Shown here: in pieces, positions 49,519 through 56,001 of the stretch | Position numbering within the stretch: position 1 is the stretch's first letter | Layout of the letters: the number at the start of each line of letters is the position of its first letter | Assembly (NCBI GenBank): GCA_016928355.1 | Contig: JAFGKW010000008.1 | Location: forward strand, 1 to 64,000 | Length of the DNA: 64,000 nt | Direction: 5' to 3' | Source of the DNA: Methanomicrobiaceae archaeon | GTDB taxonomy: Archaea; Halobacteriota; Methanomicrobia; Methanomicrobiales; Methanomicrobiaceae | Program-made: the position numbers and the translations under genes | Notes under the pieces: generated by a model | Database searches by the model: none | The model's input: only the letters and a program-made list of their open reading frames with translations | What the model was told of the DNA's origin: nothing

Positions 49519-49554
49519 TGTACAATAAAGTACAATAATGTATAAATATGTACA
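49519..49554 (+). promoter_or_regulatory. trp promoter with four phased TGTACA-type boxes
   Basis: TGTACA at 49519 and 49549, AGTACA at 49529 and TGTATA at 49539 lie exactly 10 bp apart. The third overlaps the TATA box TATAAATA (49541-49548). TGTACA is the binding core of TrpY in Methanothermobacter, known to repress trp genes. A protein bound here would block TBP. The predicted transcription start (about 49570) supports use of the ATG at 49594. Confidence 0.75.
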
Positions 49555-49593
49555 AAACAAACAATTGTTGTGATACGAGGTGATGCCGGTGGA

Positions 49594-51129
49594 ATGGAAA
49601 CCGGTTTGTTAAAAAATACAATTCCAAAATTATCGGATATTGAAAATATCTGCGCAAATAGGGAATTTCCACAGATTATTCCTCTTTATGCAGTAATGGA
49701 AGACACTTTGCCAAGACCTGCCGATGTCTTTGAACGGCTGCGTGACGGTGAGGCGTTCATACTGGAATCTCTTGAAGGGAATAAAAAAACAGCCAGGTAC
49801 TCGATACTGGGTTTTAACATAAAGGAAAAGCTCAGAATCACGGATAACAATGAAGTTATCGGAGAGAAGAAGTTTTCAGGGTTGCAGGAATCAGCAATTG
49901 CCGGAGACCCCCTGGAGGCCGCAAGAGCGGTGATTAAGAACCGACACTTCCATAATACCGGGATTCCAATCTTTCCAGGCGGTTTTGCAGGTTATTTCTC
50001 ATACGACATTGTGTATTCATTATATCCTGAACGGTTTACCAGAAACAGAGCCCGATCCAAATTTCCTTTCGCAGAATTTCTTCTTCCCGGAGACTATATG
50101 GTTTACGACCACTATGAAAACTCGGTCTATATCGCATCTCTCATGACAATTGAAAAAGAATCCGATGTGGAAACCGAATACCAGAAGGCCACTGACAGGA
50201 TCGAAGAGATGATAAATGTCCTGGCTTCAGGGACAGAAAATGATACCCCTGCAGTTAAGGATACCGGAGTGAATGATTCGGGAAGATCCAAATACGAATA
50301 CATCTCACCAACAGACAGGGAATATTTCGAAGATATGGTCAGGACCGCCCGGGATCATATCTATTCAGGAGATATCTTCCAGGCTGTTGTTTCAAGAAAG
50401 TTCGAATGTGAATTCGGCGGCGATCCTTTCACCATATACAGGTCTTTCAGGAGAATCAACCCGAGTCCCTATATGTATTTCATCGATTTCGGTGACCGGC
50501 AGGTAATCGGTGCAAGCCCGGAGATGCTCGTTCGCTGCAGAAAGGGAACCGTCTCAACCGTGCCGATCGCCGGGACGAGAAGGCGGGGACTTACACCAGA
50601 AGAGGATGCCGCTCTTGCAGACGATCTTCTTGCAGACGAAAAGGAATGCTCAGAGCACATAATGCTCGTCGATCTTGCACGAAACGATATTGGCAGAGTC
50701 TCTAAATACGGGACGGTCAGGATGTCACAGTTCATGGATGTCGAAAAGTTCTCTCATGTCCAGCATATAGTGTCCACAGTCGAAGGCGAACTGAGGGATG
50801 GTCTTGACGGGTTCGATGCCCTCAGGTCGTGCTTCCCGGCCGGAACGGTCAGCGGAGCCCCGAAGATCCGGGCGATGGAAATCATTGACGAACTCGAAAA
50901 TGATAACAGGGGGCTTTACGCCGGGGCTGTCGGCTATATCTGCCCGGACGGGGATCTCGATTTTGCTATTGCCATCAGGACGATCCTCGCAGAAAATGGA
51001 AAGCTGACACTCCAGGCAGGAGCAGGAATAGTCGCAGATTCGATCCCCGAGAAGGAATTCTTCGAAACCGAGAGCAAGGCGGCCGGAATGATAAATGCAA
51101 TCGATGCATCAGGGGGGACCGCGAGATGA
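49594..51129 (+). CDS. trpE: Anthranilate synthase component I
   Basis: 511 residues from the ATG at 49594, preceded by GAGGTGAT. A GTG at 49570 lies at or before the likely transcription start. The chorismate-binding domain shows PSPYMYFIDFGDRQVIGASPEMLVR in parts (about 290-315), GTRRRG, the LVDLARNDIGRVSKYG region and SGAPKIRAMEIIDELE (about 425-440). Feedback-site residues LLES-equivalents (FILESLEG, about 50) are present. First gene of trpEGDCFBA; overlaps trpG by 4 bp. Confidence 0.97.
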   Translation: METGLLKNTIPKLSDIENICANREFPQIIPLYAVMEDTLPRPADVFERLRDGEAFILESLEGNKKTARYSILGFNIKEKLRITDNNEVIGEKKFSGLQESAIAGDPLEAARAVIKNRHFHNTGIPIFPGGFAGYFSYDIVYSLYPERFTRNRARSKFPFAEFLLPGDYMVYDHYENSVYIASLMTIEKESDVETEYQKATDRIEEMINVLASGTENDTPAVKDTGVNDSGRSKYEYISPTDREYFEDMVRTARDHIYSGDIFQAVVSRKFECEFGGDPFTIYRSFRRINPSPYMYFIDFGDRQVIGASPEMLVRCRKGTVSTVPIAGTRRRGLTPEEDAALADDLLADEKECSEHIMLVDLARNDIGRVSKYGTVRMSQFMDVEKFSHVQHIVSTVEGELRDGLDGFDALRSCFPAGTVSGAPKIRAMEIIDELENDNRGLYAGAVGYICPDGDLDFAIAIRTILAENGKLTLQAGAGIVADSIPEKEFFETESKAAGMINAIDASGGTAR

Positions 51130-51704
51130 ACGTGCTTATCATCGACTGCTATGACAGCTTTACCTACAATCTGTGCCAGCAGATCGGAAAAACGGGCTGC
51201 AACCTCAATGTATTCAAAAACGATGCAGACACAGAGGTTGTTTTTGCCGAAAATTACGACAGGATCATTCTTTCACCAGGGCCTGGAAAGCCCGCGGACA
51301 CGGGCATATGCCTGGAAGTCCTGGAGAGACTCGGCAGTAGTGTTCCCACACTGGGGGTCTGCCTTGGTCACCAGGCAATATGTCATTTCTATGGCGGAGA
51401 GGTAGAAAAGACAAATAAACCGGTCCACGGCAGAGTCTCGGATATCGAACACGATTCAAAGAGCATATACTCCGGACTTCAATCTCCTCTAGAGGCGACA
51501 CGCTATCATTCGCTCGCCGTTCTTGATGAGACACTCCCCGAAGACCTGGTAATTACTGCACGAAGCATTGACGACAATATGATCATGGGTGTCAGGCATA
51601 AGAGATACCCGATTGAGGGTGTACAGTTCCACCCCGAGAGCATTCTCACCGGAGACGGCGACCGGCTCATTGGCAATTTCATCAGGACAGGAGTATGCAG
51701 ATGA
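51126..51704 (+). CDS. trpG: Anthranilate synthase glutamine amidotransferase
   Basis: 192 residues. Class I amidotransferase: the nucleophile Cys is in GVCLGHQAI (about 77-85) and the His-Glu pair in EGVQFHPESIL (about 168-178). Supplies ammonia to TrpE. Overlaps trpE (ATGA) and trpD (10 bp). Confidence 0.97.
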   Translation: MNVLIIDCYDSFTYNLCQQIGKTGCNLNVFKNDADTEVVFAENYDRIILSPGPGKPADTGICLEVLERLGSSVPTLGVCLGHQAICHFYGGEVEKTNKPVHGRVSDIEHDSKSIYSGLQSPLEATRYHSLAVLDETLPEDLVITARSIDDNMIMGVRHKRYPIEGVQFHPESILTGDGDRLIGNFIRTGVCR

Positions 51705-52723
51705 TCCGGGCAGCCATATCGATGGCAGTAAGCGGAACCGAACTCACGGCTATTGAAGCCTCTTTGGTCATGAAACAGATAATGAGAGGTGAGGCCACCG
51801 ATTCGCAGATCGCATCATTCATAACGGCCATGAGAATGAAGGGAGAGACAAGCAGTGAGATTGCACTCTTTGCAGGGGCGATACGTGAATCTGCAATAAA
51901 AATCCATCCGAAGATTGAAGGGATCCTTGTTGATACCTGCGGAACCGGCGGGGACGGGAGTGATACATTCAATATCAGCACTGCTGCGGCATTCGTAGCT
52001 GCAGGTGCCGGTGTACCTGTGGTAAAGCATGGCAACAGGAGCGTTTCAAGCAGGTGCGGTTCGGCTGACGTCCTTGAGGCACTCGGAGTGGATATAATGG
52101 TCCCTCCGGCAACAGTGGAAAAATTGATTGAAGATACCGGAATAGGATTCCTCTTCGCCCGCAACTATCACCCGGCTCTTAAATATGTAGCAAAGGCACG
52201 CCAGGAGACAGGAATAAGGAGCGTCTTCAACGTGCTCGGTCCGCTGGCAAATCCTGCAGGAGCTCAGGCACAGCTGCTCGGAGTCTATGACAGGAATCTT
52301 GTACGAAAGATTGCAGAAGTTCTGCTTCTGCTCGGCACAGAGAGAGCAATGGTTGTCCACGGAAACGGACTCGATGAGATCACGACAACGGGTGCAACCC
52401 TCGTTGCCGAACTAAAAAACGGTGAGATCAGTGAGTACTATCTTGACTGCAGGGATCTCGGTATCCCTGTATCGCACCAGGAAAAGCTCAGGGGCGGTGA
52501 TCCCAGGACAAATGCATATATTATCCGCAGGATTCTCTCGGGAAAAGAAGAGCCGGGAAGGGATATCGTGCTCCTGAACGCTGCAGCGGCAATATACGTG
52601 GGCGGTTACGCTCCGACGCTTGAAAAGGGGCTCTCTGCCGCTGAAAGATCTGTAGACAGCGGTTCAGCACTGAAAAAACTCGAGAGTCTTGCACTATGCA
52701 CGGCAGGTGACGGGAATGCTTGA
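51695..52723 (+). CDS. trpD: Anthranilate phosphoribosyltransferase
   Basis: 342 residues. PRPP-binding CGTGGDGSDTFNIST (about 86-100), KHGNRSVSS (about 114) and the anthranilate-site RNYHPA (about 170) are conserved. It overlaps trpG and trpC. Confidence 0.97.
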   Translation: MQMIRAAISMAVSGTELTAIEASLVMKQIMRGEATDSQIASFITAMRMKGETSSEIALFAGAIRESAIKIHPKIEGILVDTCGTGGDGSDTFNISTAAAFVAAGAGVPVVKHGNRSVSSRCGSADVLEALGVDIMVPPATVEKLIEDTGIGFLFARNYHPALKYVAKARQETGIRSVFNVLGPLANPAGAQAQLLGVYDRNLVRKIAEVLLLLGTERAMVVHGNGLDEITTTGATLVAELKNGEISEYYLDCRDLGIPVSHQEKLRGGDPRTNAYIIRRILSGKEEPGRDIVLLNAAAAIYVGGYAPTLEKGLSAAERSVDSGSALKKLESLALCTAGDGNA

Positions 52724-53465
52724 TCGTATTCTGGAAATTACAAGACTTCGAATCAGGGAGATCGATCCTTTGCCTTACATTGAAGAAAGAAGGAGATTCA
52801 GCCTTGAAGATAATCTCAGGCAGCAGAACAACAGGAACCGGATCATAGCAGAGATCAAATTCAGGTCACCTTCTGAAGGAATGATCCGTCATTATGAAGA
52901 CCCGGCCGGAATCGCATCAGGATATACAGACTCAGGATGTTGCGGGATCTCTGTTCTTACCGAACCAGAATTTTTTGGTGGGGATACGGCATTCATAGAA
53001 AGGATCCGACCCCGGACAGCGGTTCCAATCCTGAGAAAAGATTTCATCATTAATGAAGTCCAGGTCAGGCAGACGGCGGCTCTCGGGGCCGATGCGATCC
53101 TGCTTATAGCAGCCGTTCTCGGCGATTCACTCGGTGATTTTATAGAGTGTGCATCAGGCTACGGGCTTGAGGCCCTTGTCGAGGTGCATGAAGAAGCCGA
53201 GATGGAGAATGCAATCTCGGCAGGAGCACAGATTGTCGGGATTAACAACAGGAATCTTAAAACGATGAAGACCGAACTTGGAACCACAAAAAGACTCGCG
53301 CCTTTGGCGGAGGAGAGAGGACTAACTGTAGTCTGCGAAAGCGGAATCACGGGTCCTGCGGATGTAAAGGAGATGAAGGATTACTGCGACGGTTTCCTTG
53401 TCGGAACATACCTTATGTCTGCCTCAGATCCGGCGAAGGCACTGGAGGAGCTCGTATGCGCATAA
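52716..53465 (+). CDS. trpC: Indole-3-glycerol phosphate synthase
   Basis: 249 residues from the ATG at 52716. Conserved TIM-barrel motifs: IAEIKFRSPSEG (about 45-56, catalytic Lys), VLTEPEFFGG (about 82), PILRKDFI (about 103), GINNRNLKT (about 175) and ESGI (about 209). Slight overlap with trpD (8 bp) and trpF (10 bp). Confidence 0.97.
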   Translation: MLDRILEITRLRIREIDPLPYIEERRRFSLEDNLRQQNNRNRIIAEIKFRSPSEGMIRHYEDPAGIASGYTDSGCCGISVLTEPEFFGGDTAFIERIRPRTAVPILRKDFIINEVQVRQTAALGADAILLIAAVLGDSLGDFIECASGYGLEALVEVHEEAEMENAISAGAQIVGINNRNLKTMKTELGTTKRLAPLAEERGLTVVCESGITGPADVKEMKDYCDGFLVGTYLMSASDPAKALEELVCA

Positions 53466-54040
53466 AGATCTGCGGGATAACGACGGCCAGGGATGCACTA
53501 ATCGCAGAGGAGCTTGGTGCCGATGCAATAGGTGTCGTCGTCTGCTCGGATTCACCGAGATCGGTCCCTGTAAAGCGGGCTAAGGAGATATTTGCAGCCC
53601 TCCGGCCTTCCACGATGAAGGTCTGCGTTACAGATACCTGCTCCGAGAGTGACCTTGAGGTAATCACCCATATCAGACCGGACGCAATCCAGCTCCACAG
53701 TGGAATTGCAGTTCCGGAGAGATGCGGGATAAAGGTCATCCGTGCGGTCAGGCCTGGAGAAGCCCCGGTACCGGGATTCAATATGGTCCTCGTCGACGGG
53801 AGCCTGGGAAAAGGCACACCCTATGACAGTGATTTCGCGGCAAAGATAGTCCGTGAGACCGGTGCACCGGTAATACTCGCAGGAGGGCTTACGCCCGACA
53901 ATGTAGTTGAGGCGATCAGGACTGTTTCGCCTTCAGCAGTCGATGTATCATCGGGTGTCGAGAAGAGCCCGGGGATAAAAGACCCTAAAAGGGTTGCGGA
54001 GTTCATACGTCATTGCCGGGAGGTTGAGGCATGTCTGTAG
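53456..54040 (+). CDS. trpF: Phosphoribosylanthranilate isomerase
   Basis: 194 residues. KICGIT (residues 3-8) with the catalytic Cys and IQLHSG (about 77-82), then [24 protein letters not shown] and [15 protein letters not shown] complete the family pattern. Overlaps trpB by 10 bp. Confidence 0.97.
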
Positions 54041-55215
54041 ATATTGTAAAGCCAGGGAGATTCGGACGATTTGGAGGACAATTTGTCCCTGAGACACTGA
54101 TGTTCGCTCTTAACGAACTTGAATACAGCTACAGGAAGTTCTCAGCTGACGACAGATTCAAAGCCGAGTTCAACGGATATCTCAGGAGCTATGCCGGGAG
54201 AGAGACTCCGCTCACGTTCTGCAAAAATATATCCAAAGACCTCGGTTGTAGGGTGTATCTTAAACGCGAAGACCTACTTCACGGCGGCGCCCACAAGATC
54301 AATAACACCCTGGGACAGGTCCTTCTTGCAAAGTACATGGGCAAAGAGAGGATCATTGCCGAGACCGGTGCCGGCCAGCATGGTGTCGCAACCGCAATCG
54401 CGGGAGCTCTGCTCAGGATTCCCGTAGAGATCTACATGGGCGAGAAGGACTGCGAGAGGCAGAAACTCAACGTATTCCGGATGGAACTCCTGGGGGCGAA
54501 GGTCCACCCCGTTGGTTCAGGAACGAAGACCCTCAAGGATGCGACCAACGAGGCGATGCGGGACTGGGTTGCAAGCGTCATGAATACGCACTATGTCATC
54601 GGGTCAGTCGTAGGACCACACCCGTTCCCTGAAATGGTAAGGGATTTCCAGTCCGTGATTGGAAATGAGACGAAGAGGCAGGTCATGCAGGCAGAGGGAA
54701 GGCTGCCCGATGCGGCAGTTGCCTGTGTCGGCGGCGGCTCGAACGCGATTGGGATGTTTCACCCATTCATCAGCGATCCTGTAAGGCTTATCGGGGTCGA
54801 GGCTGGCGGAAAGGGCAACACTCCCGGCCAGCACGGTGCAGCCCTCTGTAAGGGAGAACCGGGCGTCCTTCACGGGGCCTTGTCCTACCTCCTCCAGGAT
54901 GAAAACGGACAGATCAGCGAGACGGACAGCATCTCCGCCGGGCTGGATTACCCCGGAGTGGGGCCCGAACACAGTATGCTTAAGGACGCGGGAAGGGTCG
55001 ATTACAGGATGGCGGGGGACGATAATGTCCTGAAGGCCTTTGCGTATCTTTCGAAGAAGGAGGGGATCATACCAGCCCTCGAGTCCGCACATGCGGTTTC
55101 ATACCTGATGGACAACTCTTCGGAGTTCGAAAAGGACGATATAGTGGTCGTATGCTTATCCGGCAGGGGAGATAAGGACGTGGCAAGGGTCGCAGAACTT
55201 TCGGAGGCGATATAG
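54031..55215 (+). CDS. trpB: Tryptophan synthase beta chain
   Basis: 394 residues. [13 protein letters not shown] at the N-terminus, PLP lysine in [13 protein letters not shown] (about 83-95) and the phosphate-binding GGGSNAIG (about 232-239). It is the TrpB1 type that pairs with TrpA, not the stand-alone TrpB2. Stop and trpA start abut exactly. Confidence 0.98.
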
Positions 55216-56001
55216 ATGGGAAGAATTGAAAAGGCATTTGAAAAGCCTGCTTTCATTGGCTACATGGTGGCCGGAGACCCGGACATTGAGAGATCGAAGA
55301 CCGTCGCATCGGCCATAATAGGGGGCGGGGCAGACATCATCGAGATCGGGATCCCCTTTACCGATCCGGTTGCCGACGGCCCGGTAATCCAGAGAGCGGA
55401 TACAAGGGCGCTTTCTGCAGGAGCCGTCCCCTCATCTGCATTCGAAATCACGAGGGACATCAGGAGATACTCGGATGTCCCGGTAGTAATCTTCACTTAT
55501 ATAAACCCAATAATAAAGGCTGGATTCGACAGTTTCTACGCTGGTGCAAAGGAAAGCGGTGCAGATGCTGTGCTTATAGTGGACATGCCGTTTGAAGAGG
55601 CGGACGAGGCACAGGCAGCGGCCGGTAAACACGGTCTCGACCAGATATTCCTCGTATCGATCACAACGAGCGAAGAGAGGATGAAAAAGATCGCGGAGAA
55701 GGCATCAGGTTTTGTATATCTCATCTCTGCCCTTGGTACAACGGGCCAGAGAGACCAAATCCCGCAGGAGGCGCTTGAGCTTGTTGCAAAGGCAAAAAAA
55801 ATATTCGATATACCGGTGGTCGTCGGTTTCGGGATATCCGGCCCCGGGAACGCCCGGAGACTGATCGACTCGGGAGCGGACGGGGTCGTCGTCGGTAGTG
55901 CGATAGTATCTGCAATTGAAGATAACATGGATTCAGCCGAAGGGATCGGGGATTCTATCAGAAAACTAGTCAATGAGATCAAATCCGGGATTGATAGTTA
56001 A
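55216..56001 (+). CDS. trpA: Tryptophan synthase alpha chain
   Basis: 261 residues. Catalytic Glu and Asp in IEIGIPFTDPVADGPVIQ (about 42-59), the phosphate loop GFGISGPGNARRL (about 203) and GSAIV (about 225). Last gene of the operon. Confidence 0.98.
   Translation: MGRIEKAFEKPAFIGYMVAGDPDIERSKTVASAIIGGGADIIEIGIPFTDPVADGPVIQRADTRALSAGAVPSSAFEITRDIRRYSDVPVVIFTYINPIIKAGFDSFYAGAKESGADAVLIVDMPFEEADEAQAAAGKHGLDQIFLVSITTSEERMKKIAEKASGFVYLISALGTTGQRDQIPQEALELVAKAKKIFDIPVVVGFGISGPGNARRLIDSGADGVVVGSAIVSAIEDNMDSAEGIGDSIRKLVNEIKSGIDS

What the first reader, a model, noticed from the sequence alone, without database searches (positions are those of the whole stretch)
49519..49554. Helically phased TRP boxes around the TATA element
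Four TGTACA-like hexamers start at 49519, 49529, 49539 and 49549, exactly 10 bp apart, and one overlaps the TATA box. TrpY of Methanothermobacter binds TGTACA; seeing its core in another order of methanogens with perfect spacing suggests a conserved repressor that coats one face of the DNA.
Basis: partly seen in the sequence, partly recalled or inferred. Interest (0 to 1): 0.65.

Follow-up and report, generated by a model that had tools for sequence, protein, structure and literature searches.

The report
Phased trp operator plus hidden leader ORF
The DNA just before the tryptophan genes of this methane-making archaeon carries an evenly spaced row of repressor-type sites that its whole order shares, and right behind it sits a previously undescribed tiny reading frame with one tryptophan codon, overlapping the start of trpE, which may let the ribosome itself sense tryptophan shortage.

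Summary
Observation confirmed: TGTACA, AGTACA, TGTATA and TGTACA start at 49519, 49529, 49539 and 49549, and box 3 overlaps the TATA box. The array is unique in the genome, never reached in shuffles, and recurs order-wide upstream of trpE, trpB2-trpE and separate trpB2 genes; related 10-bp-spaced boxes occur at trp promoters of other families of the phylum. A TrpY-family gene (HTH plus ACT) exists in the genome and in 135 of 135 good genomes of the order. It is not next to trp, its promoter lacks the array, and it persists where trpE is absent. So "trp operator" is well supported; "bound by TrpY" is likely but unproven.
Downstream lies something stranger. In 94 of 115 trpE loci (29 genera) a short ORF, ATG CCN NNG GAM TGG (Met-Pro-x-Glu/Asp-Trp, rarely Gly or Arg at codon 4) then an early stop, overlaps trpE's start in another frame. 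In 41 loci trpE's presumed ATG is CTG; 16 of these have no usable in-frame start. The ORF's ATG sits at leaderless or stop-start-coupled positions, and half the genera have a hairpin 3-6 nt behind the Trp codon. I propose, untested, that Trp starvation causes a -1 frameshift there to make TrpE.

The parts
49519..49524 (+). box 1, TGTACA
49529..49534 (+). box 2, AGTACA
49539..49544 (+). box 3, TGTATA, overlaps the TATA element
49541..49548 (+). TATA element TATAAATA of the trpE promoter
   Evidence: sequence; same position in relatives
49549..49554 (+). box 4, TGTACA
   Evidence: matched in 73% of genus representatives
49579..49584 (+). GGTGAT, Shine-Dalgarno-like, overlaps the short ORF's ATG
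   Evidence: conserved in most of 29 genera
49583..49612 (+). overlapping short ORF ATG CCG GTG GAA TGG AAA CCG GTT TGT TAA (MPVEWKPVC), with its single Trp codon at 49595-49597
49594..51129 (+). trpE (anthranilate synthase I); ATG at 49594 lies in the -1 frame relative to the short ORF
   Evidence: TIGR01820 TrpE-arch above cut-off
51126..56001 (+). rest of the operon by sequence inspection: trpG 51126, trpD 51695, trpC about 52716, trpF 53456, trpB 54031, trpA 55216-56001
   Evidence: translations; not individually profiled

Best explanation
The four boxes are an operator for a tryptophan-responsive repressor. They are spaced by one helical turn, so several copies of the protein can sit side by side on one face of the DNA, one of them over the TATA box, and exclude TBP/TFB when tryptophan is plentiful. 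The most likely protein is the TrpY-family HTH-ACT regulator encoded elsewhere in this genome, with the ACT domain reading tryptophan. The same regulator would control trpB2 and possibly a membrane transporter in relatives. Shown: array, uniqueness, conservation, regulon pattern, presence of the regulator gene. Inferred: binding, tryptophan dependence, repression rather than activation. A second, translational layer (overlapping short ORF with a Trp codon) lies immediately downstream and is treated under the rivals and the novel case.
For: Array far beyond chance and unique in the genome. In 9 genomes a 3-box pattern with up to 2 mismatches hits only trpE (8 of 9), trpB2 of the ninth (perfect copy) and one ECF-S-like gene of G002. 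trpB2 promoters of G003 and G221 carry perfect arrays, others weaker ones. Boxes at -20, -10 and +10 around the TATA box in 27%, 48% and 73% of 33 genus representatives, background 2% (the anchor choice favours these somewhat). When trpB2 leads the operon, the array moves in front of trpB2. Similar 10-bp-spaced boxes sit at trpD or trpC, the first genes of the trp operon, in other families of the phylum (G242, G248, G239, G390). TrpY_fam gene in the genome and in 135/135 good genomes of the order. Its model shows an N-terminal HTH and a C-terminal ACT domain, nearest PDB folds ACT enzymes and Lrp/AsnC regulators.
Against: No binding data. trpY is unlinked, its promoter lacks the array, and it is kept in genomes without trpE. 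The Thermococcus homologue does not act on trp. Box 3 is partly constrained simply by being the TATA box.
Confidence: 0.66

Rival explanations
1. The array is a real trp operator but is bound by a different regulator, not TrpY.
For: TrpY_fam is present where trpE is not; no array at trpY; Thermococcus uses Tar instead of TrpY.
Against: trpE plus trpB2 is the target pair recalled for Methanothermobacter TrpY, and TrpY_fam is the named candidate with HTH and ACT domains. No rival regulator was identified, but none was searched for systematically.
Confidence: 0.24
2. The boxes are only a generic promoter feature (TATA plus BRE) of this order.
For: Box 3 is the TATA element; it matches in nearly all relatives, as any TATA box would.
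Against: Genome-wide, close matches are confined to trp genes and one transporter-like gene; flanking TGTACA at 10 bp is far above background.
Confidence: 0.05
3. Second layer, reading A: TrpE is made by a -1 ribosomal frameshift. Ribosomes start at the short ORF's AUG. With enough Trp-tRNA they read UGG and stop a few codons later. When Trp-tRNA is scarce they wait at UGG, slip from GAM to GGA and continue in the trpE frame.
For: ORF in 94 of 115 loci and 29 genera; Trp codon, G13 and GATGCC invariant. Early stops: genus median 4 codons against 14 in the third frame, P 1.6e-5. 41 loci have CTG at the presumed trpE start, 16 of them no in-frame ATG/GTG/TTG in reach, while all 21 motif-less loci have an ATG. 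ATG and CTG both occur in 7 genera, never GTG or TTG. The short ORF's ATG lies 26-27 nt from the TATA box in genera g5/g9, and overlaps the trpB2 stop as TGATG in 26 loci of 6 genera. Hairpin 3-6 nt behind UGG in 15 of 29 genera, 3.1 expected, with paired changes. GGTGAT could act as the 5' stimulator known from dnaX.
Against: No slippery heptamer; tRNA-Asp re-pairs poorly on GGA; the window's genus lacks the 3' hairpin; 53 loci keep an ATG that could simply start trpE with GGTGAT as its ribosome site; genera are not statistically independent; no expression data.
Confidence: 0.4
4. Second layer, reading B: trpE starts at AUG or CUG with GGTGAT as ribosome site. The overlapping short ORF is a separate leader peptide whose translation, timed by its Trp codon, blocks or frees that start.
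For: GGTGAT lies 9 nt before [A/C]TG; 53 loci have ATG there; ORF and early stops as above.
Against: CTG starts are very rare in general (own knowledge), yet CTG is common here and GTG/TTG absent. Does not explain invariant G13. A hairpin that close behind a start would be expected to hinder initiation.
Confidence: 0.3
5. Second layer, reading C: GGUGAUGCC-NNN-GGAMUGG is an RNA element (weak hairpin AUGCC/GGAMU with a free triloop) bound by a protein at the trpE start; the short ORF is a by-product.
For: Invariant and free positions fit a small hairpin; A or C only at position 16.
Against: Does not explain early stops in the ORF frame, invariant G18-G19, the leaderless and TGATG placement, or loci without any trpE start. 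No Rfam family matches at a meaningful score.
Confidence: 0.15

Closest known systems
TrpY / TRP boxes of Methanothermobacter thermautotrophicus
   Same: Boxes of the same core over the trpE promoter, trpB2 as second target (from memory), HTH-ACT regulator of the same NCBI family
   Different: Another order; trpY unlinked to trp and its own promoter without the array; boxes in a strict 10-bp ladder; binding untested
Bacterial trp leader peptide attenuation (trpL)
   Same: Short ORF with a Trp codon in the trp mRNA, conserved, ends early
   Different: One conserved Trp codon, overlaps trpE itself, no terminator/antiterminator pair seen, archaeal
Bacterial RF2 (prfB) autoregulatory frameshift
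   Same: In reading A a slow codon whose decoding depends on the gene product diverts the ribosome into the productive frame; internal SD
   Different: -1 not +1, sense codon UGG not UGA, amino-acid biosynthesis enzyme
dnaX-type -1 programmed frameshift cassette
   Same: 5' SD-like element and, in half the genera, a 3' stem-loop at 3-6 nt
   Different: No tandem slippery heptamer; frameshift at codon 4-5 of the ORF

Membership tests
TrpY-regulated trp promoter | TrpY-family regulator encoded in the genome | tested here: met
   E 9e-61, above cut-off; HTH + ACT fold
TrpY-regulated trp promoter | Repeated TGTACA-type boxes over the trpE core promoter | tested here: met
TrpY-regulated trp promoter | Boxes conserved in relatives | tested here: met
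TrpY-regulated trp promoter | trpB2 also carries boxes | tested here: met
   (relatives; the window genome and its two congeners gave no trpB2 match)
TrpY-regulated trp promoter | trpY beside trpE and autoregulated through the same boxes | tested here: not met
   trpY on another contig, no array at its promoter
TrpY-regulated trp promoter | Tryptophan-dependent binding of TrpY to the boxes | not testable with these tools
   needs footprint or EMSA
trp leader-peptide attenuation | Short ORF with Trp codon at the head of the trpE message | tested here: met
   (comparative evidence; translation itself not shown)
trp leader-peptide attenuation | Tandem or multiple Trp codons | tested here: not met
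   one Trp codon is the conserved one in the ORFs
trp leader-peptide attenuation | Mutually exclusive terminator/antiterminator hairpins | tested here: inconclusive
   ORF overlaps trpE; only a 3' hairpin in half the genera
   16 of 41 CTG loci lack an in-frame ATG/GTG/TTG; not so in the window's genus
-1 programmed frameshift | X_XXY_YYZ slippery heptamer | tested here: not met
   site is G_GAM_UGG
-1 programmed frameshift | 3' stem-loop close behind the shift site | tested here: inconclusive
   present in 15 of 29 genera at +3 to +6, 3.1 expected, but absent in the window's genus
-1 programmed frameshift | Trans-frame protein observed | not testable with these tools
   needs mass spectrometry

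The most novel reading that the evidence does not exclude
In Methanomicrobiales, TrpE is produced by a -1 frameshift at a single conserved, hungry tryptophan codon, the fifth codon of the message's first ORF, so the ribosome itself measures Trp-tRNA. It works behind a TrpY-type phased operator. A 2016 review of recoding says no example is known of starvation ('hungry codon') frameshifting that makes a functional trans-frame protein (PMC5009743).
Probability: 0.4. Interest if true: 0.93.

Novelty: new variant of a known kind. Interest (0 to 1): 0.72.

Why it matters
Regulation of amino-acid synthesis in archaea is barely known; the paper read here names TrpY as the exception for trp. The array extends a trp operator of that type to a whole order and probably its phylum. 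The overlapping ORF would be, to my knowledge, the first comparative evidence for translational tryptophan sensing in archaea. If the frameshift reading is right it is a natural use of hungry-codon frameshifting, and in Methanoculleus marisnigri JR1 it would explain how a trpE without any usable canonical start codon is expressed. Existing methanogen proteomes could settle it.

Tried and rejected
Generic promoter feature: rejected by genome-wide pattern search. N-terminal extension of TrpE (GDAxG[M/L]) from an upstream in-frame start: rejected, several loci have a stop directly before GGT GAT and no start between. Kink-turn reading of GGUGAUGCC-NNN-GGACUGG: considered, fails because G19 replaces the required A. 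A conserved hairpin CCGGT/ACCGG around the trpE start in the window: not conserved. Averaged over all genera a downstream hairpin is not stronger than control (P 0.37); only its position is non-random. The HTH-ACT protein beside trpE in G240 as query for TrpY: no hits in the order, replaced by NF053754. First ACT-domain candidates in the genome: judged by eye to be other ACT proteins, none the TrpY-family gene. Genome-contig scan with trpE: used window-specific peptides and gave mostly bacteria, of little use. Paper searches found no report of this leader ORF. The ORF motif was not found in 20 trpE loci of other families; strong ladders are not at trpE itself there, but 10-bp boxes appear at the operon's first gene in several.

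Full report
WHAT IS THERE. The window lies in a 60-contig assembly (G000). Its same-genus relative G002 has a 2,843,290-bp genome, the length reported for Methanoplanus (now Methanolacinia) petrolearius (PMC3035365), so the genus is almost certainly Methanolacinia. The boxes start at 49519, 49529, 49539 and 49549 exactly as reported. trpE follows, with ATG at 49594, and the operon runs trpE-G-D-C-F-B-A to 56001 (trpE by profile). A GTPase gene diverges upstream.

IS IT CHANCE. Single TGTACA is not enriched in the window. The ladder scores 22/24; nothing else in the window exceeds 17, no shuffle of the window (best 17 of 40 tried) or of the local 201 bp (0 of 3000, best 19) reaches it, and the genome has no second place within two mismatches.

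CONSERVATION OF THE ARRAY. I collected 115 trpE loci of the order, with upstream DNA. The ladder NNTACA-N4-TGTATA-N4-TGTACA recurs at the trpE promoter. Where trpE follows trpB2 the ladder sits before trpB2, and a separate trpB2 carries it too: perfect copies in G003 and G221. A genome-wide 3-box search in 9 genomes gives, at two mismatches or fewer, only trpE (8 genomes), trpB2 (G003) and an ECF-S-like membrane gene (G002). Offsets of -20, -10 and +10 from the TATA box stand out against 2% elsewhere (the anchor was chosen with the flanking boxes in view, so these fractions are somewhat inflated). Outside the order, loci of other families show similar 10-bp-spaced boxes at the first gene of the trp operon, for example TGTACAtaaaTGTACA before trpD in G242.

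THE REGULATOR. NCBI's TrpY family model NF053754 finds one strong gene in the genome, G000:C2:7106-7594, and 135 of 135 good genomes of the order have a match. The protein is well conserved, and a predicted model (pLDDT 86) has an N-terminal HTH and a C-terminal ACT fold; the nearest solved folds are ACT enzymes and Lrp/AsnC regulators. Three facts hold back the claim that it binds here: it is not next to trp, its promoter has no clear array, and it is kept in genomes without trpE (116 of 135 good genomes have trpE). In Thermococcus a TrpY homologue does not regulate trp (PMC6737238).

THE OVERLAPPING SHORT ORF. Most aligned trpE starts showed the same stretch, GGTGATGCC-NNN-GGA[A/C]TGG. Read in the frame that is +1 to trpE it is ATG CCN NNG GAM TGG (Met-Pro-x-Glu/Asp-Trp; Gly or Arg at codon 4 in a few g18 loci), followed by a stop after 0 to about 30 codons. 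It is present in 94 of 115 loci and 29 genera. By genus-weighted counts GATGCC, G13, G14 and TGG are invariant (G14 is replaced in one g18 locus), the three middle bases are free, and position 16 is only A or C. The exact sequence GATGCCGGTGGAATGG is confined to trpE in 20 genomes; the looser pattern has scattered other hits. It was not found in 20 loci of other families.

EVIDENCE THAT THE ORF IS REAL. First, its stops come early: genus median 4 codons after the Trp codon against 14 in the third frame (26 of 29 genera, P 1.6e-5). In 25 full-length genes every ORF stops sooner than the control median of the same frame later in trpE, where some GC-rich genomes run open for about 100 codons. The stops lie at different places in different genera, so they are not one inherited accident. 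Second, its ATG is where initiation is expected: 26-27 nt behind the TATA box in genera g5 and g9, a leaderless arrangement, and overlapping the trpB2 stop as TGATG in 26 loci of 6 genera. Third, trpE's own presumed start is not conserved as a start: 41 loci have CTG, 7 genera contain both ATG and CTG, and none has GTG or TTG. Sixteen of the 41 have no ATG, GTG or TTG in frame near enough to the enzyme core; one is the finished genome of Methanoculleus marisnigri JR1 (G055, 2,478,101 bp; PMC3035220). All 21 loci that lost the motif do have an in-frame ATG.

A HAIRPIN BEHIND THE TRP CODON. In 15 of 29 genera a hairpin begins 3-6 nt behind UGG, against 3.1 expected from control windows in the same genes (binomial P 5.5e-8, not corrected for relatedness). 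The stems differ completely between clades (GCCGCC/GGCGGC, GCTC/GAGC, CTGCC/GGCAG, AGCCCT/AGGGCT) but keep their place. In one clade of 15 loci, paired changes exceed all shuffles on the count of two-sided changes. Average hairpin strength over all genera is not above control, and the window's own genus lacks the hairpin.

HOW IT MIGHT WORK. Layer one (likely): a repressor ladder over the TATA box. Layer two (open): the ribosome enters at the short ORF. When Trp-tRNA is plentiful, UGG is read and translation stops a few codons on. When it is scarce the ribosome waits with GAM in the P site and UGG in the A site, slips one base back onto GGA and continues as TrpE. This reading needs G13 (invariant) and explains CTG, the early stops, the placement of the ATG and the hairpin. 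GGTGAT, 7 nt before the P-site codon, would act as a 5' stimulator like those described for dnaX (PMC5009743). It does not explain why position 16 is never G or T, and tRNA-Asp would re-pair poorly. The alternative, a CUG/AUG start with a competing leader peptide, fits the 53 ATG loci, including this window, equally well. The review states that no functional example of starvation frameshifting is known.

VERDICT. Observation confirmed; interpretation partly supported; the more interesting feature is the leader ORF immediately downstream.

Noticed in passing
L052 906-1424 (-), array at 1501; G002:C1:2263371: ECF-S-like membrane protein in Methanolacinia petrolearia preceded by a multi-box TGTACA array; possibly a tryptophan transporter, no confident Pfam hit.
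   Followed up: partly
L192-L211, trpY starts: TrpY proteins of the order nearly all begin Met-Trp (ATG TGG), so the second codon of the presumed tryptophan regulator is itself a Trp codon.
   Followed up: no
L163 / G240:C67:86729-87361: In a distant family an HTH-ACT regulator is divergent from trpE, with only a weak TrpY-family score; may be a separate trp regulator.
   Followed up: partly
L068, G028 trpE start: In one genus the homologous GATGCC ATG is in frame with trpE and the Trp codon is gone, as if the frame gap had been closed.
   Followed up: no
L219, G016 trpB2: trpB2 of G016 reads through one in-frame TGA.
   Followed up: no
G177, L278: In genus g18 (Methanoregula-like) the short ORF's ATG appears to be decaying in some genomes while an in-frame trpE ATG exists downstream.
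   Followed up: partly
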